Assembly (NCBI RefSeq): GCF_002443255.2 | Contig: NW_019211454.1 | Span: forward strand, 54,987,823-55,051,822 | DNA length: 64,000 bases | From: Varroa destructor | Lineage: Eukaryota > Arthropoda > Arachnida > Mesostigmata > Varroidae | Reading direction: 5' to 3' | Shown: piece by piece, positions 1 to 61,963 of the stretch | Position numbering within the stretch: position 1 is the first letter of the stretch | How the letters are laid out: every line of letters starts with the position of its first letter | The notes under the pieces: generated by a model | What the model was told of the DNA's origin: nothing | The model's input: only the letters and a program-made list of their open reading frames with translations | Database searches by the model: none | Program-made: the position numbers and the translations under genes

Positions 1-128
1 AGCAATGTGAAGCGCAATTGTCCTTAACAGATTTCGCCCTATTCCGTCGACCTTTTTGCCTGGCGCCAAATTGCCGTTTGATGATTCAACCTATTTTTAC
101 CGGATGCTGTTGGCTAATGATGAAACAC
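1..128 (+). other. Ca-alpha1T: 3' end of an intron, apparently AT-AC (U12-type)
   Basis: Intronic sequence before the first exon seen. The reading frame of the exon is closed just upstream by TGA at 121-123, and no AG lies between that stop and the conserved Trp-Phe-Glu-Arg codons beginning at 130. The only splice end that leaves those codons in the exon is a terminal CAC at 126-128. A branch-like GGCTAAT lies about 10 bases upstream (112-118), which is the spacing of minor introns, although its match to the TCCTTAAC consensus is poor. A perfect TCCTTAAC does occur at 21-28 but is too far from base 128. The 5' end of this intron is outside the window. Confidence 0.65.
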
Positions 129-240
129 ATGGTTCGAGCGTGCATCGATGCTAGTCATTCTCCTTAATTGCGTCACCCTAGGGATGTATCAGCCGTGCGC
201 TGACGAACTCTGCGTTAACACCCGTTGCCAGATTTTGCAG
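129..240 (+). CDS. Ca-alpha1T: Cav3 exon A: domain I S1 and S1-S2 loop
   Basis: Encodes 37 full codons beginning [14 protein letters not shown] and ending in RCQILQ. This is the first membrane segment of domain I and the short extracellular loop with paired cysteines ([11 protein letters not shown]), a pattern typical of Cav3 channels. The exon enters with one base completing a codon (phase 2) and leaves at phase 0, with a strong donor GTGAGT at 241. The start at 129 rests on the AC-ended intron and on the residues WFE before the first AG. An AG acceptor at 135 would remove those conserved residues. Earlier exons (N terminus) are outside the window. Confidence 0.9.
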
Positions 241-5390: not shown

Positions 5391-5527
5391 TTGTTTGACC
5401 ATTTAATTTTCGCATTCTTCGCCATCGAAATGGTGGTCCGAATCCTGGCAATGGGCTTTATCGGAGGACGTAATTCATACCTCTCCGAAACTTGGAACCG
5501 GCTCGATTTCTTCATCGTCGTTGCTGG
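5391..5527 (+). CDS. Ca-alpha1T: Cav3 exon B: domain I S2-S3
   Basis: Encodes 45 codons plus two bases. S2 is visible as [19 protein letters not shown] with the conserved acidic residue of the voltage-sensor charge-transfer centre (E in AIEM). S3 begins [14 protein letters not shown] with the conserved Asn and Asp that pair with S4 arginines. Enters at phase 0 after a good pyrimidine tract and CAG, and leaves at phase 2 with donor GTGAGC at 5528. It joins the previous exon as CQILQ-LFDH, as in other T-type channels. Confidence 0.96.
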
Positions 5528-28353: not shown

Positions 28354-28514
28354 AGGGGAAATCTCCGGACCACAGTCCCCCGCGGAGTTTAAACGATTCG
28401 TGGTGTATCAACTGGAACCAGTACTATACGAACTGTTCCGCAGGGGAGCGGAACCCCTTCCAAGGGGCGATCTCGTTCGACAACATCGGCCTAGCCTGGG
28501 TGGCTATTTTCCTT
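28354..28514 (+). CDS. Ca-alpha1T: Cav3 exon F: domain I turret end and pore helix
   Basis: A 161-base exon. Two bases complete a Glu codon, then a hydrophilic stretch ([16 protein letters not shown]) leads to [15 protein letters not shown], a block nearly identical in Cav3 channels. It continues [19 protein letters not shown], the pore helix before the domain I filter. Ends at phase 0 with donor GTAAGT at 28515. Vertebrate Cav3 has Gln where this exon ends in Leu (AIFL-VISLEGW), which I believe is normal for arthropods. The longer open frame over the same bases is another frame and is not used. Confidence 0.96.
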
Positions 28515-32924: not shown

Positions 32925-33179
32925 ATCGGTTCATTTTTTATGATCAACCTGTGCCTGGTTGTGATCGCTACTCAATTTTCGGAGACCAAGAAAAGAGAAA
33001 TGGAACGCATGCGACAGGAACGCCAGCGCGCCGGTTCAAGTTCAACCATCTCAATGTCGGAGAGCGCCGACTGCTATACGCAGATCATTAAGTACCTGAC
33101 CCACCTGGCCAGAAGGGCCAAACGAATCACAAAGAGATGGTACCGGCGGCGGCGCAGGCAACGAAAAATCAAGAAGAGG
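32925..33179 (+). CDS. Ca-alpha1T: Cav3 exon H: IS6 and gating brake
   Basis: An 85-codon exon, phase 0 at both ends. GSFFMINLCLVVIATQFSE is IS6 and its intracellular end. TKKREMERMRQERQRAGSSS follows, then CYTQIIKYLTHLARRAKR and a strongly basic tail (RWYRRRRRQRKIKK). This helix plus basic helix right after IS6 is the gating brake of Cav3 channels, which stabilises the closed state, and it replaces the beta-subunit site of high-voltage channels. Acceptor TTGCAG, donor GTAAGC at 33180. Confidence 0.96.
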
Positions 33180-34441
33180 GTAAGCGTCGCACCACACTCG
33201 TCTATGGCAGGGTATGAAGTCGATTTGATAGTGAGTTTCTTAGCCAGAACACGAAACGGCGCTTGCCTTATACAGTCGCAGTTTCCTCATGAAGTATTCT
33301 TTCGATATCAAACTTTGATACAACTTTTTTTTTTTTTAATATAAAGCCTATACAAAGCTAAAAAAATCAGCTTTAGTGTTCTATGGTTTCTTGCTAGGGT
33401 GACAATGTCATTTGCTTCTTTTACTACTTTCAACATTACCAGTATTATTAAACTATTCTCTCGATTCTTTTGTTACCAATGCAAGCGAAGATTTAGACTC
33501 GTTATAAAATAAATTAATAGAACAGATATATATAGTAATTTGTTTTCGCAAACCATTTTGCTAGCTGGCATTTATTTTTAAAAATGAAAACCCTCGTATA
33601 ATTTCTACTGCGTATGTCAACTAGTGTTATATGAATCGGAATAACTTAAGTTTTATATAATAGAGTAAGTTGTTGATTTGTGCAAATAAATAACGTTTTA
33701 CTCAAACTGAATGGGTGGAGAGAAAATAGCGAGTTCCGACTTACTTTTCCTTATAGAAATTAATGTATCAAGCCTGTCTACCGGCATAGGTACCACATCT
33801 GCTGACACCCCATTATGAACCATATATGTTATATATTATTACTAACTTATTATGAGAAATCTGCTATCAATATTCACCAATACGTACATGAAACCTATTT
33901 GCCTTCGTCGCGGGGCGCGAAGCTGATTTAAGCATTTACATTCTTGAGAGCTGTAAAATAACGATAGGTGTCTTTGCTAGGCCACACTGTACTTAGCTGC
34001 TGTTAGAACGTAACAAATGCTACGCGATATCTACAAATATAGGGTGTTGCCGATATACGTCTATGTCTTACAAAAACCTAATGCTTAGTAAAGGTTTTGT
34101 TCAGCTGACTTTGGCTATTCTTGATAAAAACCGAGTTATACGTTTATATCGATCAGTTCACTTTTCAAGTAATTATCAGTCTTCTTTTTGTGGTCGCTGT
34201 GTGGGACATTAACGAATACCGAGTTATGTTAGATTGAAGCTCACATGCGCTGATAGCAATTCCACACACAAGATACGTTTGTAGATAAATGGGTCGGTCT
34301 TGATAAAGACTCGTTTATTGGGGCGCCGGTCGGCACGGCGTAGAAAATTCAAAAAATCTGTTGTCTAGAGCACTATGGATCAGGATACTAACGAGCATGA
34401 TTATTATCATTGACGTACTTATTTTTATCTGGCTATTTCAG
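33180..34441 (+). other. Ca-alpha1T: Intron
   Basis: A 1.26 kb AT-rich intron, donor GTAAGC, acceptor GGCTATTTCAG. It contains a 10-base T run at 33329 and no assignable feature. Confidence 0.85.
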
Positions 34442-34622: not shown

Positions 34623-35329
34623 GTATGTTGGTGCTCCACACTCCCTCATCCGCCGACCCCGCTTTCTTCTTTCCTGGGCCCCCACAAGCGCTTATTATCC
34701 CTTCTCTGGCGAATCTGCGTCTTCCTACGGGACCAATAACTCACTGTATCGACAGCACCAACCAACCAACCCGGTATAGTTCTTACCATAAACCTTTGTT
34801 CTTTCTACTACAACATTATGGAAAGTCTCAGAGAGTAAAGTACGTAAACGTCATTACGTTGTCACGTGTCTCCCAACTAATACGATTTTAGCTTGCCTTG
34901 ACCTACTGACGAGTAGAGGTAGTTAGTATAGTTTAATGCTCTTTCCTTTTCTTCGTAGAGTACAGCGGACAGTATGCACCCTGTAAACGTGTACTCGAGC
35001 CCGCGTCTGTGTCGCATTACTACCATATCAAGATACGTCTATGGCTATCTGTCGTCGCCTCTGTGATCTTCTTTCCTTTTCTTCCCCATCTTCAACACTG
35101 TGTTTCATACAGCACCACGGAACTTTATCTTCCTTGATCTTACTAACTATTGCTGTTTTAGTGGATCTCTTTCTTTGCTTATTCGTCTCTGAGCATCAGA
35201 AAACAAATTCCTTTCGGTCTCTTACTTTCTATGTATCTATCTATGCGTTTCTGTTTTCCGCTCTATACTCTATCGCTAGTGTTGATTGTCCCCGCTGTTT
35301 TATTTCCGCTGTCCTGTTATCCGTTCTAG
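34623..35329 (+). other. Ca-alpha1T: Intron
   Basis: A 707-base intron between linker exons. The exon frame stays open until a TAG at 34889-34891, so retention would truncate the channel in the I-II linker. A long CT-rich tract (about 35040-35329) precedes the acceptor GTTCTAG. Confidence 0.85.
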
Positions 35330-36205
35330 GTAGCACGGGCGTACGAGACCAAATGCCATGCCCCTGCCTCGAGCAGCTGGGCCCCACGATACGTGCTGTT
35401 TCGTATTCGGGGGACCCAGACGATTACTGCCAAACCCCGTACCACCTCGACAGTTTCGACCACCTCGAGCACTTTCAGCACATCCTTCCCCGCAAGTGCA
35501 CTTGTATCTGCCTCCCTTCCTGCAGCACGTGCTCTATTGTGCTACATAGCGGCGATTGTCATAGTACTTACAATGACAATAGCAATAGCTTTCTGCCGCT
35601 AGCGCAGCAGTTTCCGCTATCTCAACAGCAGCAACAGGCACGGTCACAGCCGGAAACGGTGACGAAAAATGGTTCGACACCGATCTTATGCGCGCTCAAC
35701 ACAAATTCAGCGTCTGCTGCAGGAGCTCATATAACAACAGCCCCAGCTGGTGCAGTAGGCGCCTATGGCGCGGACGTTGTTCCGAGCATTTCGGCCACTG
35801 TCGACACTCAACAGCGATACCTTGGGCATAACGAATGCCAAAAAAATGCAAATTATAACAATGAGCGTAACAATAATAATAAGAACAGCCCTGTAAATAG
35901 TAATTATAGCCGTGATGGCCATAGTCAATTTGTCGTAGACATTTGGGCGTCTTCAACAAGAGGAGCTTCGGGGTCGAATGTTGTGGGGATAGTAACAAAG
36001 ACACTTGTCTCATCGTTGACCCCTTCGTCAATAGCCAATGCTCTGCAAAGGCAACAGCATGATAGTGAAGGCGATCAGTCAAACGTGTATGTCGTACATG
36101 ACGCCGTAGAATTAGAACCGCGCGCGGCCGATTTCGATCTAGCTCTTCTGGACAGATTCTCATCGGCTAACGTCAGTCATGCCAGTGGCACGAACACCTA
36201 TACCG
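35330..36205 (+). CDS. Ca-alpha1T: Cav3 exon J (short form): I-II linker, Cys-rich then Asn/Gln/Ser-rich
   Basis: An 876-base exon. Two bases complete Gly, then STGVRDQMPCPCLEQLGP, a His/Asp stretch, and a Cys cluster (RKCTCICLPSCSTCS). After that comes low-complexity sequence with QQQQQ, NNERNNNNKN and many Ser/Thr/Ala. Ends at the strong donor CCG-GTAAGT (36206), phase 1. The Cys cluster may match the CPYC-type motif in the I-II linker of vertebrate Cav3. The rest is not conserved and probably disordered. See the separate entry for the longer form. Confidence 0.85.
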
Positions 36206-36775
36206 GTAAGTCCCTGTTGCTGCTGCCCCCCCCCACACCAAATATGCCGGAATCAACAAGAACAACAAAAACAATCTTACCTTTACCACTACCTCCGCCG
36301 GAACAAGCGCCTAGTATTGTACTGCAATCGACCGCTAGAGCCATAACGCTCACCCCAGGCAAGCCAACAATAACGCCCACGACACAACCGAACGACCGCG
36401 TGGGCGAAGGTCATCTGTTGGCATCGGGAGGCGAACTGTCGATGGGCAGTAGAAATAGCACAGATATACAATGTCAAACTGTAGTTACTAAAGAACGCGA
36501 TACCGTTTCGAAACTAGCAGATGCTATACAACCAGCAGTATTACCAGCAGCACAGGATCCACTTCTATCCAGTTATCACACGAATGCCGTAATCGAATTG
36601 GTTACACAAACAACTATTGGACAACAAAAAAGTTCGTTGGCCTCAAGTTCGAAAAATATTAGCGTTACTAACGATCGAGGCGCTGCCAATACGCCGCTAA
36701 GTTATAAAGGCAACCACAGTACCATCACCGGCATAAATGGCAATATCACATTCGGGATCAATTCCGCAGCTGAAG
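36206..36775 (+). CDS. Ca-alpha1T: Optional in-frame extension of exon J
   Basis: The reading frame of exon J continues unbroken for 570 bases (190 codons) past the GTAAGT donor, up to a second donor GAAG-GTAACC at 36776 in the same phase. The sequence reads like linker protein: a Pro-rich start after a 9-base C run, then Thr/Pro-rich (PGKPTITPTTQPND), then Ser/Asn/Gly-rich. The frame closes only at 36822. Either two alternative donors give linkers differing by 190 residues, or only the distal donor is used. The proximal donor matches consensus better. Confidence 0.6.
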
Positions 36776-37434
36776 GTAACCCTGTCACTGTGTTTTCATC
36801 TCTAGATACTGCCAACAGCTAAGTAAATTTAATGCATTTCCATTGGCTATTGTCAAATGAATTGGCTTCCACGACCTGTATCAGTTCCGTTAGGAAACAG
36901 CAATATGTTTACTATCTATGATGAATTCACGAGCATGCCTACTCTTTAGGATTTGTCTTATTCCAGCTAGATAATAGGTTGCTTTACGGCAAAAGTGACC
37001 TGAATAGATGCATGCGCTATGTAGACCAATGTATCACGAGATACTTTCTGAAGGACATTCACAGATCGGTCGTGGACCGTTGAAGCTTACTTAGTTTATT
37101 CATTTGTTTATTCTCCTAACAGATTTTCCTCTTGAGTAAGCTAAGGTGTCTATAAACCTTCAGAATGTAATGAACCTAATATGCGAACTATCTCATCCAT
37201 ACATTCGTGTTAGATTTTTTTAGGACATAGAAAAAATAATAACTAGAATTATTCACCCGCTTTATAGTGCTGCAGACATCACGCACTTTATTGTTGCCGC
37301 CCTGTTTTTGATGGTTACATTTGACAAAAACATTGTTCATTAGGTCACCAACCGCCTGGCGTTGTGCACCCCAAATGGACCCCACGGGCTGCTGTACTCT
37401 GAATTAAATCTACCGTTTATTGTTGGCACTACCA

Positions 37435-37755: not shown

Positions 37756-38304
37756 CTAAAACGATAATAAGCAACTATTACGAATTCTGCTCGTATTTAC
37801 TAGAAACGTTAGAGTTGATTAGATGAGGTTACGTTAGGCTATATCTGCGTGTATATGTATATCGTATCACCTTCGTCAGTAACACAGTTCACCAATCATG
37901 ATCTCGTGCAGTCTGTAGACACGTTGTCCTCTATCTGTGTCTATTGTTACCATTTTCACTATTATTCTTTTTATATGTTACCTAATTAACTGACTAATTT
38001 TTACGATATTTTTTTTTTCTCACACTGTGTCTCTTCTTTTCTTCAATGTTCTTCTTCACGTCTGACCTCACGGATTTCTTCCCATCGGGTTGTGTTGTTT
38101 CGCTGCTGCCGTTGTGCCACCGCCGCTGTGCTCTGCGTCGGTCCGGCTGACTTTCTGGGACACGCACGCTGACCTTTTGGCCGGTCACCCTATCACCGTG
38201 ATCATCGTGATCTTTTTTTTCGTGTCATTCATTTTTTCCGTGTTTGTCCTTCTTTCGAACTTTTCACTATTACACATTTTCTATGTTCTGTTCAATGCTA
38301 TCAG

Positions 38305-39885
38305 CGTCGAGTGTGTCCTGCCAACCCGAAGCACGAACAACCGTATTAGTTTCGAAGAGCACCTGCAGCACAAATATCAATAACACCAATGGCTCGAGTC
38401 ATGCGGCGACAGTCGTGTCGATCGTTTCGAGCTGTCAACCAGCTAATATTAGTAGTAGGCTACCGTCGGCGGCCACGGCAAGACTGACTCAGGCCATCGC
38501 CACTGGCAAGAGCGATCCAGCCGATAAGCGCATCACCCAGACTTCACGTCCGCTAGAAGGAGAGCAAGCCGCCATCACCTCTATCACCAATACCAATACA
38601 ACGTCACAACCGCTACAAACCAATACCGCTACAACTATAAGTGCAACAACAGCGCCAGCAAATCCTCTATCAATCTCAGTTTCCGTATCTTCATCGCCAA
38701 CGATTCTACTCCGTTCACCGGCCGCTACTACTACCACTTCTACTACAGGTAGCAATGGTACCAACTCTGCTTTTTCTAGTCTGCAGCAGACGGCTGTTAA
38801 CAGCACAACAACATCAGCCGCCGCAGCCAGTGTCCATTGCCCCACAACGAGTTATTTCATAGACGATACTGACGGCTATAGTAATTTGACTGTTCCTAGC
38901 GTAATGTCAACAGCTACTGGACAGCTACCACAACAGCACCTACCGCCACCGCCTGTATGGTCAACAAAAAACGACATAACACAAATATCAGCTGGTAGCC
39001 AACAGCCACAACAGCTGCAGCAGCAGCAGCAGAAGCCGTCCTCTGTAAAAGTAATTACAAACAAAGATGGAAGAGCAGGACTAGTAATTGACAGAAAAGC
39101 GCGGCCAGAGACAACGCCAAGTCACCAAGTTGTAGTCGAAAGTAGCGGCGGGTACCTTGTTAATAGCACCGCTATACGCTCGCTTCATCCACAACATAAC
39201 GTCTCTTTACCTCACCACAATCTACCCTCTACAATCTGTTCTTCTTCAACCTCCGCATTAGTCCCCACTTGTTCCTCTTTTTCTTCTTATTCTTCTCCTT
39301 CTTCTGCAACAACAGCAACAAGATCCATTATTATTTGTACCTCACCGGCCCCGCGATTGCCACGGGTCCACCAGTCTCCAGCCATAAGCGGTGACTTCTC
39401 TGCCCAGAGAACAACGATAGATTCAATGGACCAGCAACAACGTGGGTCCAGAAACGGACAGCAAAGTCAGTCATTATTCCCTATGGTATCATGCAGTGAA
39501 CATTCGATTAACGTGAGCAATTTCCCTTACGTATCATCCGATTGTCATTCACTACCAGCATCTGCCCACCGATCAGACGTAGCATTAGAGAGTAAACAGG
39601 CTTCTGGGATCGTTGCACTGCACGAAACTAGTCTGAATCCATCGATGACGTATGGAACCGACTCCCAACTAGTCTCAGGTCCCCCGTCCATCGACGATGA
39701 TACTGCCTTCATCTGTGTAGGACTAGGTGGGGGAGGGCCTGTTCAACCTTTGACCATAGAGCTTGGTTCCAATGTAGGTGCATCGACCGATATCGAACAA
39801 CCGCAGCTACAACAACAGCTTCACGTCAACAATCGACTAAGCGAAGTGGAACGCAAAAATAACGCGTACAGCGCAGGCGATGATG
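38305..39885 (+). CDS. Ca-alpha1T: Cav3 exon K: giant I-II linker exon
   Basis: A 1581-base exon (527 codons), phase 1 in and phase 1 out, acceptor TATCAG after a 60-base pyrimidine-rich tract, donor ATG-GTAAGT at 39886. The product is almost all Ser/Thr/Gln/Pro/Ala, with a Gln cluster (QQPQQLQQQQQKP), Pro runs (LPPPPVW), Ser runs and several N-x-S/T. There is no folded domain. A short ordered-looking stretch (IDDDTAFICVGLGGGGP) near its end may be a binding motif. Vertebrate Cav3 has no counterpart of this size, but long disordered I-II linkers occur in insect T-type channels. The start just after AG is chosen because phase and tract agree. Confidence 0.85.
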
Positions 39886-41950
39886 GTAAGTCACCATCGT
39901 GACTCATAAACAAAACGCTATTCGAAGTGCTAGATAATTATATAGTTTTTGTATATTTTATGAAGAAATCAGCTTCAAGTCGACAGGTAAGAAATGTATA
40001 GTTATTAACTGTTACACATTTTCAACGGTGTTCATGAAAGCGGATGTCTTGAAAAAGACAAGCTTAGACATCAGGTAAGTTAGGCTAAGCTGAAAGCATT
40101 ATTTCGGAACTCGGCCGCAGCCCTCAAGGCCGCGGCCTTCACGGTTGGGCTAACTACGCTCACCTTATGCCTCCACCTAACCTTACGATTTTTTTTATAC
40201 AACTTCCCTGTAATTGTACATAGTTCTATTTCCCTGTGCAATGATTATTGTGGACTATTCGCATACGGTACATTAGCAATACTTTTATGTAAAATTTGGA
40301 AAAATATAAAAAGGCAGATCCAAATTAAATATTTTTAGAAATATGGTATTTTCTTTGACTGATATATTTTGCATGTGTCCATAAATACAACGCGGAACGG
40401 GAAGTTCTTTGCGTCGATACGTCGGTGCGATACATATATAGAAAACATTTGCCCACCATTTTACTCCCTGTAGACCAATCGTTAATTACCCAAAATATCT
40501 TTCTTTGCCTCCCTATCCTGTTCAAGTCCAACTCGCCTAATTGCAACCTCCAAAAAAATATGTTCCCCGTAGCAATATGTCCAAGAACTTTTCCTCGGTT
40601 TTTCCGAAAGCCCTAAAAATTTTCTAAGCCAATTTCCATCCAGAAAAGCAATAGAAAAACACGCTGCCAGTTATTCAAAATGAGCTACCAATATGTAATT
40701 CTAGCCAGTCCTTTTTCTCCTGTTAAAGTCAAATCGCTTGTCCTAAACAGAGCCTTTGTCGCGCAAAAACAGAAGGCAAAGCAAGGATTCATCGCAAAGA
40801 GCATACAAAGCATATACGTAAGCTATACGTGTCAAATCAGTAAGGAAAATTGAAGTGATATTCAGGAACGGTCGGCTTTGGTGTAACATGAGGACGGGCA
40901 TTTTGAGCAAGGCTAGCAGGCCTATCGGCTAACCTCTCACTGGATCTTCAGTGCCAATTTACATTCATCCGAATAAATGATTTCCATCTGTTAAAGCAAA
41001 AGAACGCCCCTTTGCTCTTGTAGTTCCCGTAGCTACCCTCCAGCAACTTCAGTAGACCTACCCGGCAGTCCTCAACGGCCAGCGCAAAAAAAGGCGCTAA
41101 TGATGGTACCAGCGCCACCGACATATTGCTTCACGGCGGACTCGGGCAAAACACGATGGACATGCATGATCTTTTGAGCTAAACAGCTGCCGTGTTCTAG
41201 TTCACTTCATTGCGTTACTCGGTGGGACGGCAGCCCTTGAACTGCGAATCCTCGAAGTGTGTCATCGTTAAATATGTGGCTTCACAGAGCAAGTCTTTCT
41301 TCCCAATTTGACGTCTCGTATTGGCTGGAAACATATCCACTACCAGCATTAAATCAGACTCAACTCTTCGACGGTTAAACCTACAGGGAGCTCTCTCTGC
41401 GCAGAGCAATACAGAGAAGAGATATTATCTCTATGCAACTTTAGCCAGTTAAATAAACGGCCATAAGTTGGGAAGAGAGTTACTTGAGTATAGAAAAGTG
41501 GTCGACTTCTTTGATCTTGCAGGAAACGAGCTCAAAGTTTTTAATTAGGAACTTCTCAAGTGTAGGAGTTAAAGCTTCCAAATGATCTGATCCTTATTTG
41601 TCTACTGAGTGAGTCGATGCAACTGTTGTATGGCAACGAATATATTGTTAAATAGAAAATTGACTATTCAAGATCAGGGTACAAATAATAGACAAATAAT
41701 TTATAACCACACTGAAACCTAGTTATTAAGGAAACTAGAAGAACGTTAGGCCTTAAAGGTATAAGCCCCCACAGAATGAGGGTATACTGCCAAATGCTAC
41801 ATCAGCTAGACAATATAACAGGCACCGCATTTTAGATATGCAGTTATAGTATAGCCACCAGTTACTTTTATATTTTGGTTAACATACCCGTTAAGTGGCG
41901 AAAAGTAACGATAACACGACCAGTTATTTTACTTTCATGATCACGAACAG
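39886..41950 (+). other. Ca-alpha1T: Intron
   Basis: A 2.1 kb intron, donor GTAAGT, acceptor CACGAACAG. Two more GTAAG motifs preceded by CAG (39987 and 40076) lack a usable acceptor and frame, so I call no exon there. Nothing else assignable. Confidence 0.8.
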
Positions 41951-42132: not shown

Positions 42133-42390
42133 GTAAATCCTTTATCTAATAGATAAAATAAGCAACTAGTAAGAAACCGTTATTCTGGATATATGTACTT
42201 TGGCTGTCGTGGCCTTAGAAGACCTTTTTCCTTAAATATGTAAACTCTAAGAAGATGTATGATGACATACCAAGTTCGAAACGTAGGTTCAAGTTCCGCA
42301 ACAATTATTTTAGTCAGCGATTGACAAGCGAGGTGCTGCTATTGGTTTAAAGCAGGGAATAAGCTTCTTGACATTATGCCAAAATTTCAG
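42133..42390 (+). other. Ca-alpha1T: Short intron
   Basis: A 258-base intron, donor GTAAAT, acceptor AAATTTCAG. One of the shortest introns in the window. Confidence 0.9.
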
Positions 42391-42692
42391 CGTGGTATTC
42401 TCGCAGCGATCCTGGTGAATACTCTCTCAATGGGAATTGAGTACCACCAGCAGCCACAGGAGCTTACCTTGGCCGTAGAATTATCAAACATCTTGTTTAC
42501 ATTTGTCTTCGGCCTTGAGATGCTCCTCAAGATACTCGCGGAGGGTTTCGGCAAATACATCCAGTCGGGTTTCAACCTGTTCGACGGCATAATCGTCGTA
42601 CTGTCGACAGCCGAACTGCTCAACCAGTCCGAAGGATCAGGACTCTCCGTGTTAAGGACGTTTCGACTTCTCAGGATACTGAAGCTAGTCAG
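42391..42692 (+). CDS. Ca-alpha1T: Cav3 exon M: domain II S1-S4
   Basis: A 302-base exon. IIS1 [23 protein letters not shown]2 [21 protein letters not shown]3 [17 protein letters not shown], and IIS4 [17 protein letters not shown] with arginines and lysine at three-residue spacing. All match Cav3 domain II closely. It packs almost a whole voltage sensor into one exon, whereas domain I uses three. Leaves at phase 2 with donor GTTTGT at 42693. Confidence 0.97.
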
Positions 42693-43369: not shown

Positions 43370-43471
43370 ATTTATGCCAGCATTGCGACGTCAGTTGTTC
43401 ATTATGCTGAGAACTATGGATAATGTGGCCGTCTTCTTTGCGCTACTAATGCTGTTCATATTCATATTCAG
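43370..43471 (+). CDS. Ca-alpha1T: Cav3 exon N: domain II S4-S5 linker and most of S5
   Basis: A 102-base exon: [18 protein letters not shown] (S4-S5 linker) and [15 protein letters not shown] (IIS5). Leaves after AG of a Ser codon (phase 2) with a weak donor GTCGGT at 43472. The Ser codon is completed by C, the first base of either alternative turret exon. The weak donor in front of the alternative pair suits regulated splicing. Confidence 0.96.
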
Positions 43472-44517: not shown

Positions 44518-47500
44518 TCGATCTATCTATCTGTCTATCTCTCTCTTTAGCTCTCTGTCTGTATCTTGGCCATATTGTTCATCTCTATTTCTTCCTCTAT
44601 ATCTTTAGCTTCTCCTTCTCTCCGATCACTATATTACCTAAGCATTTTATTAGTCGATCAATGATGGATCGCGGTGATAGGCAAAACAATTCGCATCGAT
44701 TATGTATAATAATATTAATAAAAATATGAACAAATCAACAAGACGTGGCAAACGAAACAAGTTACTGTTCTGTTAAAGTTAGAAGGAATCCTACTAAGTT
44801 AACGATTGCGCATGTCAGTAGAGAGAATCGCTCCTCTTGTAAGGGAGACCCACAAGAGCAACGCTGCTTAGCTAGTACTACCACTGCTTTCCTGTTGTCG
44901 AGACAGTTAATCTTAGAGGAAGGTGGGCAGCGGGATTTACCGTTAGGTCCAGTGCTGAACAGAACTGTATTTTCCATCGCAGCGAGACGCCAACCGCCTT
45001 AAAGTTGCGGGTGTTCCATTTATCACAGTGCCATAGTCTACAACTATTACTGCTACTGGCGTACATTGCTACTTTGTCATTTTGGTGTTTATGTTCTTGT
45101 TGCTTTTGATTGGTTCAGTCGAATCTCTATTAGTGTTTTTGATTGTTGTTATCATTTATTTTTCATATATCTCATGATTTGGTTGCTATTTCAGATTACT
45201 GACGTACGTAATTACTGTTTACTTGACTGAATGATGGTTGATTCGTTTATTCTGTTTCTTCTGTTTCTTGATGACGTTGACATGGATCGTTGAGGATGAA
45301 GTTGATTGGTTGATGATATTGATGGTGGTTGATGATAATGAATTGTTGATGGTCGATGAATTGATTTTTAGACTGGCCTTCTCTGTTAGCGGTACGAGTT
45401 TTCCCAACTTTTGATCGGACTCGTTGTAGCGTGTCAATAGCAATTTCCCACAAAGTAATTAGCGTGGCAGCATGCTTGAAAGTGCCTGTTTTGGCTACCT
45501 ATTACATTGATACTGTTGACTTTGTTGTAGCTAAGAAGAAAAGACCGTTTTAAAGACATTTTTGCAACAACGACGGGAACAAGCATTGGTCTACCGACAA
45601 AAAGAAAGAAAGGAAAAACGAGGAAAAACGCAACGAAAATTCGAGAGAGCGTGTCGATTTGTCGCAGCAGGCAGTCCGTCATTCGGACAATACCGTGGCC
45701 TCTATTTTCGCTATATCCATAGCACTATCAGCCCTATCGCTGTCACACCGCCGTCCCGCAGATAGCTTCAGCATAGGGAATAGCTTAGCTTTGAGCGACA
45801 TCCGTTCATCATGCAGTATAACTTGATTTGCCTGGCTAAGTGATATTCTCTGAACTCGCTTTTATCTCTATGGTGTGATCTGATATGACCATATTGTACA
45901 GCATTGTTACAATCCATTAGTTAGAACATAATCAACTCCACTGCATATCTATACATATGTATATATTTATAGATATCTCTTTATAATCGCAGTGTACATT
46001 GCCGTACCGCTTATTTAAGTAATAACTGAATCCAACGGAATCGTAAGTTTTTAGTTCAGAGAGGGAGGATCATAGAGGCGCTAGTTCAATTTCTGGGCGA
46101 GCTATTTTCGTCGCTTCCCATCTTCTTTAAGTTCGTAGTAATCAGATGCAACCAATACACCTTGTATACTCGGTAAAACTGTCTTTTTTGTAGTATAAGA
46201 TAGTAAGATAATTATTGTGCGTTGTAATGACCGTGTTCCATTGCTCTTTGTTTCAATCCGTTGATCCTGCCCGTCTGATTTTAATCACGCTGGTTGGAAG
46301 CCCCACAGTCAGGCCGTGTGAACAAGCTGTTATATTTGTTGAGTGAGTAAAGTGCTTCACTCCCAGTTGATCCTATCGGCTTCGCTCAGCTTTTGCACGC
46401 CTGTGCGTTAGAGGCCTGCAACACCCAGCGGACAGCGCATACCCTCCTTGTGTCGTTTCGAACGCCCAGACCGGAGTTTTCATTACTCAGCGGCCTGCTG
46501 GTCAATCGCGCTTCATTCAACTACCTCATAACTCCTCCTTCTCACTCGTCAGCTGTCACTGCTGCTTCGTACATTTTCTCTTCCAAATATAATCATGACA
46601 ATGTTTGACGATGAGGATGACTGGTATCCTATATTGTACATTTATTGAAGAGTACAGAACGGATTATTCTAGCTAGCCACATCGACAATGCCGTAACTCA
46701 TTGTTGTTGATTGTGGTGACGTAAAGTCAGATGGCCAATTTTGATGGTTGGATAATAAAACTGGATGACATCCTGATAACGATCATTGACTGAGAGTTGC
46801 TTCTGACCAGCGGTCTCTGTTGACTGCCAGTAGTTTTATAATTCCGTTCAGCTTCCCCCCAACTGACGTGACTGGTTGATGACTGGCGTACGCTCATCCA
46901 TATACACCTATCTATCTACCTATATATATATATATACGTCTGCCTGAACGCCTCAACCTTCCGGCTTCGCTTGGCCTATTCACTGTCGTCTCTCACCGTT
47001 TATATATCTATTCGTTCGTGCCTACCAAACCATCTCGTTATGTACATATCTTTTTCCACCTGCCTATCTTTCTCTCTCCCTCTCTCTCTCTCTTTTTCTG
47101 TCTGACCAGCCGCAACGCCAACTTCACCAATCAAAAAGCCCAAAATCCGAACAATCCAAACATACACTGCTCCGACTTTGTCATTCCGATTTCCAACCGT
47201 CCGAACCAACATCCCCAACCAAAAACCAAGTTTTCGATCAGCTTCTTCTGCCCCCGCAGGACCTCGGAACTGCAGATATGATACCGGACTTACCCTCGAG
47301 ATATGGGCTGCTGCTGCTATTGGTGACGATGATAAATTAGCGAAAAGAATCCAAACGCCGTTACTGTTCGAAATACCGGTTATAGCCTGCAAACACAAAG
47401 TCCACTTACATAAAATTAAAAACAGTTCACGCGCGCTTGTCAGCCCAATGAAGTAGATTCAATAGCCGCACGCGGGTGGGTAAATCGTTGGACCATTATA

Positions 47501-47994: not shown

Positions 47995-48115
47995 CATCCT
48001 GGGAATGAATTTGTTCGGTGGAAAATTCTGTACCGTGGACACACCAACGGGGCAGCGCGTCTGTGATAGGAAAAACTTTGATACGTTACTCTGGGCGTTA
48101 GTCACCGTGTTTCAG
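47995..48115 (+). CDS. Ca-alpha1T: Cav3 exon O-a: IIS5 end and short turret (alternative)
   Basis: A 121-base exon. One base completes Ser, then [40 protein letters not shown]. It gives the end of IIS5, a short extracellular turret with two cysteines, and the start of the domain II pore helix. Ends at phase 0, donor GTACGC at 48116. This form resembles the vertebrate sequence (ILGMHLFGCKF...DRKNFDSLLWAIVTVFQ) and is the shorter of two alternatives. The other is at 54728-54881 with identical entry and exit phases. Confidence 0.95.
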
Positions 48116-51100
48116 GTACGCAGCCTCCCACATCGCCGCCTACCGCCTTACATTTGATCTCTTACGAAAAATGCTCTCCCAGTCATTCAAGTTCGTGAGT
48201 CACTTCGTATCTATACATCTTCATTAATAACAAACAAGCAACAGAAGAATGACAAAGTAAAGACCAAGCCGACAAAGAACATTCTACTCTATTCCTATTA
48301 TTAATTGGAATTGGTTTCCTTTTTACTTGCTAACGATAAGCTAACCATTACAAATATTTACGCCTGCGTCAACTGAAGCATCCCTATCTATCTCATCCAA
48401 GCGTTCTACAAATACCTCATCCACTCTCACGGCCATCTTTACACTCTCTCATATCTAATCCACGAACACGGCCCGGCTCATGGCTATCACCGAGGAAGTA
48501 GACCGCAGTTACGCGGCCTTAAATCTCAATAGATATATTTGTCTGATCGCTCTAAATGCCGTCAATCACGGAGGATCATAGCAGAACCTGCTGCTATTCT
48601 GGATGCATCATTTAGTAACTTTGTAACAAGAAATTGTTATAGCTTACCCGAAAATATACAGCATGCAATGTATGTACGTGCAACGTACAAAAGCACTAAG
48701 TTGAACATTAAGGAATAGCTATTGAAAAATGTTAAATAGAATAAAAAAATATAAAATTAAAAACGCAAGTTAAAAACTAAAGCAAAAATATATTCATTAC
48801 ATTAAGGCAAACATATAATTTTATAGTTACAAAAAAATGAAGTGAATACAAGTATTATTTTTCGTTTGTGTATTTTATTGAGGCACTTCTACGTTTTAAT
48901 GAAAACGTGAAGTCGCCATATTGACATTAGGTTTGGCAGTAACCCTGTCCTACGTGGTTGACGGCCAGTCAAACGATCTCATTAGTCGGCAACTTTTACC
49001 GGAAATGAGATGCCCTCACAAATGACAGACATTATGTCAGGTTCCTGGTTCTCGCATGCCCATTTCGGATCTGCTCTTCCTTTTCAACAGCCCTGTTTTC
49101 CTCCTTCTAGACATCGTTGTGTTCAGAACTGGACGCAGCGATAACGAACTAAGTAAATCAGTAAAAATACTATTAATTAATGGCTCACAACAGGACACCG
49201 TATATGTATTATAGTCAAAACGCCGCAGTTTTTACGGCTTCTTTTCGATAAGACGTTCCATAATTGAACTTACGTAGATGCCGAACGAATTATCAATTGA
49301 AAGAAACGCTTACATGGCACTAACCGTCACTAACTCAACATGAAACTTTCGCAAACCCCAATTCCGCCGTCAAGCGCCCCTTTTTTTCCACAAACGATTT
49401 TTTCCACAAACCTATGCCACGCTCGCACAGCAGTGGCCCATTTTCAGGACGACGAAACATAACATATGACAAAGAATTCAAACAGATGAAGAATATAAGA
49501 CCCCCATCTAATGATCTATGACGCCTTCCATACATGCACAACCGTGGTCGTTAGGCGTTCTTACCCCATTGGTATATATTATTTGCTAATCCACCTGGCG
49601 TCGATGCACGAGGAGCTTAAAGCAACTTCACATGAGAAGACAGCTACAATCCGCAACAGTGGGGGGTTACCATTCATTTTAATGACGATGGTAGAGACGT
49701 GATTATTCAGCTGAGGCTGATCTCTGCTATGCTCAACAGAGTCAATCGAGGCAGTGTCGATATCTTCGTTTTGGTGTGTCGAGAATAAACGACGACCAAC
49801 AAAGCCATGGCAGTCCGAAGTTCAACCTTTCAGGTCCGATGCAGTTACCAGGTCGTCTTATTGTTGCCACTGTTCCTATAATAGAGATCAGCAATGTGGT
49901 ATGTTATCAGAGCGTTAGATCAGCTGCTTAGTCATAAACCACCATTGAGCAGCTACTAGTACAACCAGAGGTTATATAGCAACTCGTCTTCGTATAAACT
50001 ACCTCAACCGTCTGTACTCTGTTCTTTCTCTATCATTTACCATCGATCTCTTACTCTGTGTCTTCCGCCCGAAACCATGATAATCGATCTTAACATTTCG
50101 TGTACCCAACCATCATTCGCCCCATCTGCGCACCCACTTTGCGCAGCGCCATGCAATGGTCGCTGCAGTTTGATACTTACAGAAAGTAGGTAACGACTAT
50201 GTGCTGGTTGTGATAATGAGAGTGGGTCACTGTGCGGAGCTGACTGTATATTTAGTACATCGATTGATCAACTGACTCATAGACCTTTGCCATCGGGTCA
50301 CACGCGCGACAGGTGGGGACGAGAACAGTAGGTGGCAAAGCAACGGAATATGTTGAATAGGACAAAAAGAATCAGCACTTGGCCGAACATATTGAACGTA
50401 CACCGAGGCTGTGGCCACTGAAGCCGTTCATCTCTGGACGTTCACACCGTACAAAGAAGCTTAGCGAAGTACTATTATGAGAGTAAAATTAACCCTAGAG
50501 CTGAACGGCCAGTGGCCAGCTAGTGTAGCACTAAAATAGATCAGTCACGCACTAACCGGGATTGAGCAACTGAATCACTCCGCCGTCTGATCATTAGATG
50601 ATCCATAACATCCACGAACTCTCAATCGATAGCTTTAGGTGCCTGATCAAACGAGTAGTTAGTCCATTGGTAACGCACATCTACACGGTAACATGTTGCC
50701 TGCTGGAGAAATCCCCATAGAAAACGTCTAACATATCCGGCCCCCTTTTTCTCCCTTTATTTTTTTCACTAATTGCTATCATTACTATACAGTAAATATC
50801 TACCTGCTATTCACTCCAACAAGTACATTTATAGGATGAATTTATATAATATCATATCGAAGGACAGAATTTGTTCTACCGTTTATGGTATGATCATAGA
50901 CGTACTTTTTTCCTTTCTATATTCATTTCGGCTCTTGTTACATTTTTGCTATCTTCGAATCCACTATGTCCGTTTTAGCACCACTTTTTTTATCGTGATG
51001 TGCTAGCCTAATTCTATACATATTTTACTAGAGTTTTTAGAATACTTCTACTCTGTTTCCTTGTTTTCTCTCTCCCGCGTATTACTGGTCGGTGGTTGTG

Positions 51101-54100
51101 AACGGGCTCAATGGCGGTTCAATGAGAATGCTCAATCAGCTATAATCAGTATCTATAGTGTATTATCAATTGACTGCACTCTCGAATGCTGTTTGTTGAT
51201 ATGGCGATTGTCGTTGTCGTCGTTGCCGATTACATCGTTACCGTTTTGTATATATATATATATTAGTGTTGTCGTCTGCTACTGACCTACCATAATATTG
51301 TTGTTAAGCTTCTTGTCAGCCTGGCTTCTTCACGTCTCGATATTATTACTGTACTATATTGTCAATATAGATGTTGCTGTGTCTAATCCCTTGTACCTCT
51401 ATCTTCCCCCGTTGTTCATTAGTATCGTCATTGTTTTTGTTAATGTTAAGCTTTCTTGTTAGTGTTGTTTATCACAATGAAGAAAATGATGATGATGATG
51501 CGGTTATTGTTGTTTACGTAGTGAATCTATGTCTACCGTTGACACGCGCTGTATGTCACTTTCAGAGAGTATCCTTTGTCATATAGCTGTTACATGCTGT
51601 CAGTGTTGTTTATGTTGTTACTGCTAGTGTTATGGGTGTTATCTTCGTTGTTATCATACCTGCGATTGCTGTTATATGGCGCTATCTATATCTGTGTCGC
51701 TGTTGTTGCGGTCTTGACTATTGAGTTGATTGATTACATTTCCTTCACGAGGTCTCGCTGTTCGATTGCGCCACTGCAGCTGCTGTCGCGAGCCGTTGTC
51801 TCCGTAGGGGGCAACACCCGACGATTAGATTAGCCCCCGTGATCACTACTGCATCAGCGCACAAGCGATTCCCTACAAACAAACTCAGTGTTTCACACAT
51901 TACGCCGATGAAATTGATGCTATAATCGCTTTAGGTCGTTTGTTGTTTTTGCCTTTTTTTTATGTTTTATTTAACGAATTTTTTCTATTATTTTTTTCAG
52001 TTTATGTCCCCATATCTGTTTATCTCTCATTGAGGCCTTTTTCATTCCTCGGTTTATAAACAATAGCTCGAATCTAGCTGTTGCTTTTCGTCGTCTTCCC
52101 TGATCCTAGAAATATAATAGTTGTGCTCGACGTGACACTAAACGAATGTGGAGGGATAAATGGCTGAACGAGAGAGTGCGTGGCCCATTTTTTAACCATA
52201 CTACAACCGTTTTCGCCGGAGAGGAAGTTACTGGCAAAAGGGAACACTGCTGTTCGATACGGTTTTACTAGAGACCTCCATTTGCCGCACCTCATGTGGG
52301 GCACAGGAGAAATGGTGTGGCTGCGTACAGGAGTAGAATGAGGTGCGTTTTTTCACTGATGTTGAAAATTCTGCCGCTGTTATGACTTTTTTCTTCGTTT
52401 TTTTTTTCTTTTTTTTTTACTATAACAAAAATGTCTACCGGCAACCACAACTACGTTAGCTATACGTTACGTATCACAGTTGACAACGTTACGACAGATC
52501 GTCATTACCATTCGATTTATCGTAGTCCAGATTCACAATAGCTACCACTCATCCACGAAGTGTATGAACTGTACAATAAGATGCTATTTACGCGTCTTGT
52601 GTACGTGTGTCGTCAACGTATAGCCCGACATTATACCCAGAGGCTCATGTGTAGCAAGCATCGTTTACTGGTCGATGTCAGATTTTTAGAACGGACACGA
52701 CTCTACTTTCTCGTTTTGTTTCTGTCGTACCCACATCTGCATTAGTATTTGTCTACCAAAGCTCAACAAAATTCTTCTATATATATTAAGTCTACTGGGA
52801 CCTATCTATCAGATCTATTGGGTCGTCACAGCTATGACTGAAGTTTTCATTTGTACCTGCAGATTCAAAGATCATGCCGTTTGAACTTCAATTGGAAAGG
52901 AGGGCCGGTTTGAAGTATAGATGCAATAGCCTATTTTGTGCAAGTTTCAATTTCTGAGTTACAGTAAAAAGAGAAAAAAAAAAACGTAACACACAAAAAA
53001 AAGATGTCGCCGGAAGACGATGTTGCCCAGTTTACAATTAGCAGCTTTCCCAAATTGACATGCAAATCTCGCCCGATTAGTTATAACGCAAAGATGGGCA
53101 AATTCAAAATAAAAAACAAGTCAATATAGCAGATGTTTAGTTCTCACTGAGATGATACTTCGTCACTCTTGTAATTTATTGTGACGACAGAAGAACATGA
53201 CCCGCTCGATGTGTTGTTGGACGTGACATCTAGAAAATAGATAACTTTAGAGCAGATTTAGACACGAGGATGTGATGGACAGTAGAACAGGGAAAAAATC
53301 TCTAAGAGTAATAAGATTAAAATGAGTAACATACCGCGATACGATTGGACCGCGTTTCGGTAAAGGAAAACGTACTGTTTGTCTATGCTTGTTAAGTGAA
53401 AGCGGGCTTTGTTTTTTGGCCATCGCCAGCTTCGAATATGCCCTGCAGTTTTATGTATAGCCTACGCCTCAAGTAGTTCGAGTTGGTAAAAATCGCTAAT
53501 ATCAAACATAGCTCTGCAATTTATGTATGTGCGTTAATAGAGATAAATGTCTCACTGTTCTATATGTGGTATAATCCAGCAGACTGGAATGGTGATACGA
53601 TATGTGTTTTGTTTAGTAGTGCAGCCGTAAGTCATATTATTGGCTTCTGTCACAGCTTTTTGGCTAGAAGCGTGTAAGGGTTAATTGACCATGGTTCATT
53701 TTTGCTTTTTTAGAATATCAGAAGGCACATTTTTTAAATGATAAATTAAATATAATGCCTAAATTATTTTACGTTCTCAGATGCATGTAAGTTAGATAGA
53801 GTGAACTACTAATAATGATTGTTAACGTTTCGAGGACGTTTTCATACAGCAGAAGGAAAACGATGTTTTAGTTATATCAGATTTTTATTTATTTCGACTC
53901 GTGACGAAATCCTTTATAAGTGATGCAAATAACAAGAAATCGTTAAAGTGATCAGAGATCCCGCTACAAAAACGTGCGACCAAGCGGTCATGCCAGTTGT
54001 TACTGGATCAGAATAACGTAAAGCTACAATGTAATTAATAGACAAATTGAGCGACTGGTTGAACTCAGATCCGAGTCGAGGAAAGGAAGGGTCGTAGTTC

Positions 54101-54727
54101 ACGAAACAGAACTCTAATCAGAAGAAGGACAAAATCGAGACTAAGCAATAATATAATCAATTTTTGAACTGCCATTATCAGAAGGTCTTTTCTCGTTCCC
54201 CTCTGGCAGGATCCCTTAAATGATCTGAAAGATAATCGAAAGTGCAGTTGACTTTAAAAGCGTATTGTTATAATGATCGTAGTCTATTTAGTCAGAATGG
54301 TGATCGATTGATTGGCAATAATCGATCTATCGATACTGATCGATTGATATAAAAAAGAACAACGATCTTCTGCTATAGACAACGATCTGTATCTATGAGC
54401 GGACTGATAACTGACCGCCATGTCCTAGTATATGGTAGTGTTCACGCAAATGTATTTGCTGGCGATTGAGCTTACTGATTTATATTGATGGTTGAATGAT
54501 TGACCGCAACGATCTGGCGAACTCGTTGGTGGCGGGTTCACGAGCGATGGTGAAGCGTCGCAGCCGGGCCTTGTGGTTTCTGGGTCGTGGCTCGGTGCGA
54601 TGATCTGACGACACCACCGCTGACGGTGTTAATCGTATTCTGCTATTGTTGTTTCTTCGTATGCCGTGTCTCCTTGGTCGTTCCCACCGGTCGATGATAC
54701 GATGATGGTGATTGATGATGATCGCAG
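48116..54727 (+). other. Ca-alpha1T: Intron between the two alternative turret exons
   Basis: A 6.6 kb interval, donor GTACGC, acceptor GATCGCAG with a purine-rich rather than pyrimidine-rich upstream tract. It contains TG/TTG-rich DNA (51060-51800), repeated GATCGATT motifs (54300-54350) and a GATGATG tract (54690-54722) immediately before the acceptor. No coding feature is recognised. Confidence 0.85.
54690..54727 (+). promoter_or_regulatory. Ca-alpha1T: Purine-rich GAT repeat in place of a pyrimidine tract before exon O-b
   Basis: The 37 bases before the acceptor of the Cys-rich alternative exon are mostly repeated GATGAT/GATTGAT rather than pyrimidines. Such a weak 3' splice site usually needs an activator, so this exon is probably the regulated choice. 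That is an inference from sequence only. Confidence 0.4.
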
Positions 54728-54881
54728 CTGCCTAGGTATGCACTTGTTTGGTGGTAAGTTCTGTCAGAAGGCAGACGGCAGCCTGTGCACTTGCCAAGAT
54801 CTCGCAGACACCTCCATCGACTGCCAGTGTGATCGAAAACACTTTAACTCGTTCTTATGGGCGACCGTGACCGTATTCCAG
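54728..54881 (+). CDS. Ca-alpha1T: Cav3 exon O-b: IIS5 end and Cys-rich turret (alternative)
   Basis: A 154-base exon. One base completes Ser, then [51 protein letters not shown]. Same role as exon O-a but the turret is 11 residues longer and has five cysteines instead of two, plus a Cys in S5. Ends at phase 0, donor GTATGT. The mollusc channel LCav3 has a comparable pair of domain II turret exons (12a/12b), reported to change sodium versus calcium permeability. By analogy this exon may tune ion selectivity. Confidence 0.94.
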
Positions 54882-55701: not shown

Positions 55702-55947
55702 ATCTTGACACAAGAGGATTGGAATATCGTCCTTTTTAATGGAATGGAGAAGACGAGCCCGTGGGCCGCGCTGTATTTCGTCGCCTTGATGACGTTCGGC
55801 AACTACGTACTCTTCAACCTTTTGGTAGCCATTCTCGTGGAGGGATTTGCCGCCGAGGGTGAACGCAAGCGGAGTATGGAAGCTCTTGCAAATGCCGAAA
55901 ACCAACAAAAAGTCATCGAAGAAACCAACCTTGACTTTGACTGCAAG
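55702..55947 (+). CDS. Ca-alpha1T: Cav3 exon P: domain II filter, IIS6 and start of II-III linker
   Basis: An 82-codon exon, phase 0 at both ends. [20 protein letters not shown] carries the domain II filter glutamate (codon 55714-55716). [20 protein letters not shown] is IIS6, then [20 protein letters not shown] enters the cytosol. The TQEDW filter and [16 protein letters not shown] are hallmarks of Cav3. Donor GTAAGT at 55948. Both alternative turret exons splice to this start. Confidence 0.97.
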
Positions 55948-61690: not shown

Positions 61691-61963
61691 CTGTTCGGCC
61701 TGTTCGAACCTCGATGGTGTTTTAGAAACAAGGAAGACTACTCATTATTTGTATTTTCACCGACAAACGCTATTCGCGTATTGTGCGTACGATTGTCAGA
61801 CTCGAAGTCGTTTGACTATACCATACTTGTATTCATCGCCTCAAACTGTATTACGCTAGCGATGGAACGGCCTAACATCCCGCCGTCAAGCCTCGAGCGA
61901 CAGATATTAGCTGCAGCTAATTACACGTTTACCGTCGTGTTCGCCTTCGAAATGGTTGTCAAG
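61691..61963 (+). CDS. Ca-alpha1T: Cav3 exon V: domain III S1-S2
   Basis: A 91-codon exon, phase 0 at both ends. Pre-S1 cytosolic part LFGLFEPRWCFRNKEDYSLF with VFSPTNAIRVLC, then IIIS1 FDYTILVFIASNCITLAMER and IIIS2 YTFTVVFAFEMVVK. The motif NCITLAMERP and the preceding YxLFxFSPxNxxR are typical of Cav3 domain III. Donor GTAACA at 61964. The following exon (VVALG-like S2-S3) is not in the window. Confidence 0.96.

What the first reader, a model, noticed from the sequence alone, without database searches (positions are those of the whole stretch)
47995..54881. Mutually exclusive exons for the domain II turret, enforced by codon phase
Two exons 6.6 kb apart both encode the end of IIS5, the extracellular turret and the pore-helix start (both end in TVFQ). 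Each enters after AG of a Ser codon and exits at phase 0. Lengths are 121 and 154 bases, both 1 mod 3. If both are joined, the second is read CTG CCT AGG TAT and hits TAA at its tenth codon. If both are skipped, exon N joined to exon P reads AGA TCT TGA. So exactly one must be used. One turret has two Cys, the other five in a loop 11 residues longer. Established: the mollusc LCav3 has a similar exon 12 pair affecting sodium permeability. Whether this animal uses its pair the same way is inference.
Basis: partly seen in the sequence, partly recalled or inferred. Interest (0 to 1): 0.9.

Follow-up and report, generated by a model that had tools for sequence, protein, structure and literature searches.

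The report
Calcium channel's swappable pore-turret exons
An animal T-type calcium channel gene carries two alternative versions of one short exon that shapes the mouth of the pore, a known and very old arrangement in invertebrates, but here both versions carry the residue thought to tell them apart, so the usual explanation of what the choice does may not hold in this animal.

Summary
Exons 47995-48115 (121 bp) and 54728-54881 (154 bp) of a Cav3 (T-type) channel gene encode alternative ends of IIS5, turret and pore-helix start. Either alone keeps frame; both or neither gives an early stop. The arrangement is not new: it is the exon 12a/12b pair of invertebrate Cav3, which in a mollusc sets sodium against calcium permeability (PMC9694082) and is already reported as conserved across arthropods, nematodes and molluscs (PMC9741552). 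Two departures from the published description are worth keeping. (1) The reported selectivity-switch residue (Lys in 12a, neutral in 12b of molluscs and nematodes) is Lys in both exons here. (2) The short exon lacks the cysteine that ties the turret to voltage sensor I, while the long exon and the IS1-S2 loop keep candidates. So this pair may switch the sensor tether rather than, or as well as, selectivity. No arthropod sequences or RNA could be fetched, so whether these departures are lineage-wide, and whether both exons are used, is untested. Codon phase does not choose the exon; it only makes wrong joins unproductive.

The parts
124..240 (+). Exon (5' border not determined) coding IS1 and the IS1-S2 loop, with three Cys (QPC..LC..RC) that line up with three of human Cav3.1; in Cav3.1 a Cys of this loop is the tether partner
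   Evidence: 3' border inferred from the translation (GT codon after CQILQ) and from the gapless join to the exon at 5391 in the alignment
42356..42692 (+). Exon coding IIS1 to IIS4
43370..43471 (+). Exon N: IIS4-S5 linker and most of IIS5, ends in AG of a Ser codon
47995..48115 (+). Exon A (12a-like): end of IIS5, short turret with two Cys, start of pore helix; 121 bp; Lys at D-20; Gly in place of the tether Cys
54728..54881 (+). Exon B (12b-like): end of IIS5, long turret C..CxC..CxC, start of pore helix; 154 bp; Lys at D-20
55702..55947 (+). Exon P: rest of domain II pore with the ED motif (TQEDW), IIS6 and start of the II-III linker

Best explanation
This is the exon 12a/12b pair of an invertebrate Cav3 (T-type) channel gene: two ancient tandem copies of one exon, spliced one at a time. 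Shown from sequence: either exon alone keeps the frame, both or neither brings a stop early in domain II, so only one-exon messages make a full channel. Inferred: splicing factors choose the exon, and wrong joins are lost by nonsense-mediated decay. Effect on the channel, inferred: exon A gives a short turret held by one disulfide with no link to voltage sensor I; exon B gives a longer turret with two internal disulfides and a fifth Cys placed to tie it to the IS1-S2 loop. Because both carry the Lys that raises sodium permeability in the snail channel, I expect a difference in gating and in Zn/Ni or redox sensitivity; I give a snail-like sodium/calcium switch about 0.4. The confidence below is for identity and one-exon-per-productive-message, not for the functional effect; the rivals listed divide up the functional effect.
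For: Frame logic and borders. Best PDB matches are human Cav3 channels. Lengths 41 and 52 aa equal the published means of exon 12a (41, range 38-46) and 12b (52, range 48-55), and B has the published C..CxC..CxC pattern (PMC7382465 passages). B's turret Cys lie at -45, -37, -35, -25 and -23 from the domain II filter Asp, within one residue of the positions that follow from the LCav3-12b numbers in PMC7382465 and PMC9694082 taken together. The pair is reported as conserved across arthropods (PMC9741552 section 16). Constraint on both copies: pN 0.14, pS 0.75. Lys at D-20 in 2 of 2 exons. Exon A has Gly where human Cav3 has the tether Cys, and IS1-S2 keeps 3 of 3 Cys. B has one of the two lowest pyrimidine contents of 11 acceptors, which would fit regulation.
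Against: No transcript evidence for either exon. No arthropod relatives could be fetched, so conservation of these two exons was not tested here. Exon A departs from the 'nearly invariant' tri-Cys pattern of 12a. Exon B departs from the neutral residue reported for 12b, though that report covers molluscs and nematodes. Disulfides and tether are inferred from alignment, not from a structure.
Confidence: 0.85

Rival explanations
1. Sodium/calcium switch as in the pond snail: exon A (short) makes a mainly sodium-passing channel, exon B (penta-Cys) a more calcium-selective one.
For: Same place, similar lengths and the same one- versus two-disulfide turret contrast as LCav3-12a/12b, where the effect was measured (passages of PMC9694082, PMC7382465, PMC4436565).
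Against: The residue reported to switch selectivity is Lys in both exons here. Replacing the Ala of LCav3-12b by Lys made that channel prefer sodium (PMC9694082 abstract and section 11), and exon B naturally has Lys there.
Confidence: 0.4
2. Both forms are sodium-permeable, and the choice mainly switches the disulfide tether between turret II and voltage sensor I (present with B, absent with A), changing gating speed and redox or metal sensitivity.
For: Lys plus at least one intraturret Cys pair in both exons; the tether Cys position is Gly in A; B has a Cys inside the double bridge at the place proposed as tether in LCav3-12b; the IS1-S2 Cys are retained.
Against: Human Cav3.1, 3.2 and 3.3 also have Lys at D-20 (counted by eye on the alignments) and are described as calcium-selective (Cav3.1 and 3.2 in PMC9694082; Cav3.3 in PMC10120453), so Lys alone is not sufficient. 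The domain IV L6 loop, which also matters, lies outside the window.
Confidence: 0.35
3. Both forms are mainly calcium-selective like vertebrate Cav3, and the exons tune only expression or small kinetic differences.
For: Human Cav3.1-3.3 share Lys at D-20 and are described as calcium-selective.
Against: Human turrets have a single Cys and so no intraturret pair (PMC7382465); both exons here have at least one pair, and such pairs are proposed to hold the Lys in place (PMC9694082 section 19).
Confidence: 0.2
4. One of the two exons is a dead or unused copy.
For: No RNA evidence; exon B has one of the two lowest pyrimidine contents among 11 acceptors compared.
Against: Both exons have intact borders, open frame and constrained protein sequence; the event is reported as conserved across protostomes.
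Confidence: 0.05

Closest known systems
Lymnaea stagnalis LCav3 exons 12a/12b (passages and sections of PMC9694082, PMC7382465, PMC4436565)
   Same: Gene, place in domain II, exon lengths (39 and 50 aa there), one short and one long turret, penta-Cys pattern of the long one, reported mutually exclusive use
   Different: Here the short exon has two Cys instead of three (tether Cys is Gly), and the long exon has Lys where LCav3-12b has Ala
Drosophila Ca-alpha1T tandem exon substitution event (PMC9741552, section 16 read)
   Same: Single tandem exon pair in the fly Cav3 gene, reported as conserved across arthropods, nematodes and molluscs
   Different: Fly sequences could not be fetched, so no residue-level comparison was made
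Caenorhabditis elegans cca-1 exons 12a/12b (PMC9694082 passages)
   Same: Short and long alternative turret, Lys in 12a
   Different: C. elegans 12b has Met at the switch position, and its tether Cys lies outside the internal bridges
Human Cav3.1, Cav3.2, Cav3.3 (PDB matches)
   Same: Best sequence matches; Lys at D-20 in all three
   Different: One turret form with the tether Cys but no intraturret Cys pair

Membership tests
Cav3 (T-type) channel alpha-1 subunit | Closest sequence relatives are Cav3 channels | tested here: met
   alpha-1H, 1I and 1G rank first (E 7.2e-81 or better), next channel type at 1.8e-51; for domain I. Only solved structures were compared
Cav3 (T-type) channel alpha-1 subunit | EEDD selectivity filter | tested here: inconclusive
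   Glu present in domains I (SLEGW) and II (TQEDW); domain III and IV filters were not found in the window, which ends in domain III
Protostome Cav3 exon 12a/12b pair | Two alternative exons covering end of IIS5, turret and start of pore helix | tested here: met
Protostome Cav3 exon 12a/12b pair | Lengths 38-46 aa (12a) and 48-55 aa (12b) | tested here: met
   41 and 52 aa counting the split Ser codon; ranges from PMC7382465
Protostome Cav3 exon 12a/12b pair | 12b turret with C..CxC..CxC | tested here: met
   turret Cys at -45, -37, -35, -25, -23 from the filter Asp
Protostome Cav3 exon 12a/12b pair | 12a turret with CxxC..C (reported as nearly invariant, so typical rather than defining) | tested here: not met
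   exon A has Cys only at -34 and -23; the first Cys is Gly (FGGKFC)
Protostome Cav3 exon 12a/12b pair | Lys in 12a and neutral residue in 12b at the switch position (reported for molluscs and nematodes; not defining for the pair) | tested here: not met
   Lys in both exons at D-20
Protostome Cav3 exon 12a/12b pair | Only one of the two exons per productive message | tested here: inconclusive
   frame allows only single inclusion; no RNA available
Protostome Cav3 exon 12a/12b pair | Exon choice changes sodium/calcium permeability | not testable with these tools
   needs expression and recording

The most novel reading that the evidence does not exclude
In this lineage the ancient exon 12 pair is no longer a sodium/calcium switch: both forms carry the sodium-promoting Lys, and exon choice instead makes or breaks the disulfide tether between the domain II turret and voltage sensor I, a splice-controlled, redox-sensitive gating switch.
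Probability: 0.3. Interest if true: 0.6.

Novelty: new member of a known kind. Interest (0 to 1): 0.33.

Why it matters
The published single-lysine rule for switching a Cav3 channel between calcium and sodium rests on molluscs and nematodes. A natural long turret with the five-Cys framework plus Lys is the configuration that was made artificially in the snail channel, so this gene offers a natural test of whether Lys, the Cys framework or the sensor tether decides ion preference.

Tried and rejected
Third copy of the exon: tblastn of both exon peptides against the window (rows up to E 50) found A and B only below E 0.02.

RNA pairing that could enforce the choice: five inverted-repeat pairs (two of them overlapping, low-complexity) in the 12.2 kb between N and P, one of which (45070-45089 with 48240-48259) would loop out exon A. 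Exact inverted 12-mer pairs number 11, against a mean of 6.2 and a range of 1-14 in 50 Markov-resampled controls: no clear excess. Rejected as evidence.

Steric or spliceosome-type exclusion: the intron between A and B is 6612 bases, and the donors match the usual consensus at 7 of 9 (A) and 8 of 9 (B) positions. Both rejected.

Splicing-factor motifs within 300 bases of A, B and P: counted without controls; one TGCATG upstream of P, none near A or B. Not used.

Organism: no Rfam family at gathering threshold and no tRNA, so 'arthropod' stays unverified.

Metagenome scans are capped at 0; the remaining collections hold prokaryotes, phages or plasmids by their descriptions and were not scanned. 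NCBIfam gave 0 families.

Papers: searches. The listings were capped in some (25 of 162 papers, 20 of 422, 20 of 312, 15 of 43). I noticed no study of sodium permeability of arthropod exon 12 forms in the titles listed; the library is open-licence only, so this does not show that none exists.

Full report
WHAT IS THERE. The window holds part of a Cav3 (T-type) channel gene on the + strand, from domain I S1 (about position 124) into domain III (coding frames near 61720-61963 and from 63342). In domain II, exon N (43370-43471) ends after AG of a Ser codon. Two candidate next exons follow: A at 47995-48115 (121 bp) and B at 54728-54881 (154 bp); then exon P at 55702-55947, with the filter motif TQEDW. 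All borders of this set are GT-AG. N+A+P and N+B+P are open; N+A+B meets TAA at the tenth codon after the A/B join, 124 bases before the B/P junction; N+P meets TGA at the third codon counting the split one, 239 bases before the next junction. Both stops lie more than 50-55 bases before a junction, so both messages would be decay targets by the usual rule (rule recalled; no transcript tested). The spliced product with exon A matches human Cav3.2, Cav3.3 and Cav3.1 first, far ahead of other solved channels; both forms match Pfam Ion_trans.

IS IT MORE THAN CHANCE. Using exon A's peptide, exon B is the only other match in the window below E 0.02 (E 9.9e-11; next 0.024). Of 31 alignable codons, 24 encode the same residue, 10 of them with a different codon; pN is 0.14 and pS 0.75, the latter close to saturation. 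The unalignable loop codons (10 of 41 in A, 21 of 52 in B) were dropped. This looks like an old duplication with constraint on protein sequence in both copies. That both lengths are 1 mod 3 is expected of duplicates that kept their flanking phases, so the phase logic is real but not surprising, and it discards wrong messages rather than choosing the exon.

WHAT IT IS. The pair fits the published exon 12a/12b of invertebrate Cav3. PMC7382465 (outline, passages and part 1 of 2 of the methods) gives 12a as 38-46 aa, mean 41, with a nearly invariant CxxC..C, and 12b as 48-55 aa, mean 52, with C..CxC..CxC in most protostomes, and calls them mutually exclusive. PMC4436565 (passages and section 18) says that the majority of protostome species, arthropods named among them, have both. 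PMC9741552 (passages and section 16) reports the Ca-alpha1T event as conserved across arthropods, nematodes and molluscs and older than 610 million years. The exons here are 41 and 52 aa. So the main claim of the finding is already known.

WHERE IT DEPARTS. (1) Switch residue. PMC9694082 (part 1 of 3 of section 3, sections 8, 11 and 19, and passages) reports that Lys in 12a against a neutral residue in 12b sets sodium or calcium preference in molluscs and nematodes, and that swapping the residue swaps preference in the snail channel. PMC10120453 (passages) repeats this for molluscs and nematodes. The paper's numbers place the residue 20 before the filter Asp of domain II: D1098 minus 20 is A1078, the residue named also in PMC10017353 (part 1 of 2), and with the 11-residue difference between the exons the same offset gives K1067 in 12a; the A1089 used elsewhere in the paper does not fit this register. 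Here D-20 is Lys in 2 of 2 exons. The natural long exon thus has at this position what the sodium-permeable snail 12b mutant has. Against a simple reading, human Cav3.1, 3.2 and 3.3 also have Lys at D-20 (counted by eye on the four alignments printed) and are described as calcium-selective, so Lys is not sufficient alone. (2) Tether. Human Cav3 has FGCKF, whose Cys bridges to the IS1-S2 loop (PMC9694082 section 3; PMC7382465 passages). Exon A has FGGKFC: the tether Cys is Gly, leaving a two-Cys turret. Exon B has Gly there too, but carries the five-Cys framework in which a Cys at -37, inside the two internal bridges, corresponds to the proposed tether of LCav3-12b (C1061 or C1062; the paper gives both). 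The five positions agree with LCav3-12b within one residue. The IS1-S2 loop here keeps three Cys aligned with human Cav3.1, so a partner is available with B and, by this alignment, left unpaired with A.

HOW IT MOST LIKELY WORKS. Shown from sequence: two constrained exons, of which exactly one gives an open frame. Inferred: regulated choice, with decay of wrong joins. B and P have the lowest pyrimidine content of the 11 acceptors compared (0.41 each; A 0.59; the other eight 0.53-0.76), which fits a regulated site but proves nothing. Inferred: A gives a turret with one bridge and no sensor tether, B a turret with two bridges and a tether. For the functional effect I give the snail-like sodium/calcium switch 0.40, a tether switch with both forms sodium-permeable 0.35, a human-like calcium-selective pair 0.20, and a dead exon 0.05; these are judgements, not computed. 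PMC9694082 (section 8) reports slower kinetics with 12a than with 12b in the snail channel and relates this to the tether's position.

LIMITS. No RNA, no relatives' sequences and no structure could be had. The organism is not verified. For the fly channel, PMC4673464 (passages) expressed one isoform, measured calcium/barium ratio and Ni block, and states that differences among isoforms are unclear; the passages shown report no sodium permeability and do not say which exon 12 form was used. The domain IV L6 loop, needed with exon 12a for full sodium permeability in chimeras (PMC7382465, PMC9694082), is outside the window. I judge the finding sound but known, with one testable twist.

Noticed in passing
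window 34987-36819 and 38211-39899, + strand: Two very long open frames (611 and 563 aa), rich in Ser, Thr, Asn and Gln by eye, between the IS6 exon and the domain II exons; possibly large I-II linker exons; borders not determined.
   Followed up: no
window 28404-28511 approx., + strand: Frame reading [36 protein letters not shown], apparently the domain I turret and pore-helix exon; borders not determined.
   Followed up: partly
window 32925-33188, + strand: End of IS6 followed by an Arg/Lys-rich stretch (KRITKRWYRRRRRQRKIKKR) where the Cav3 gating brake would lie (location recalled).
   Followed up: no
window 45070-45089 and 48240-48259: 20-nt arms, 85% complementary, flanking exon A; could loop it out, but inverted pairs in the region are within the control range.
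   Followed up: partly
window 54729-54731: First full codon of exon B is Cys, inside IIS5 (SCLGM against SILGM in A), a sixth Cys outside the turret.
   Followed up: no
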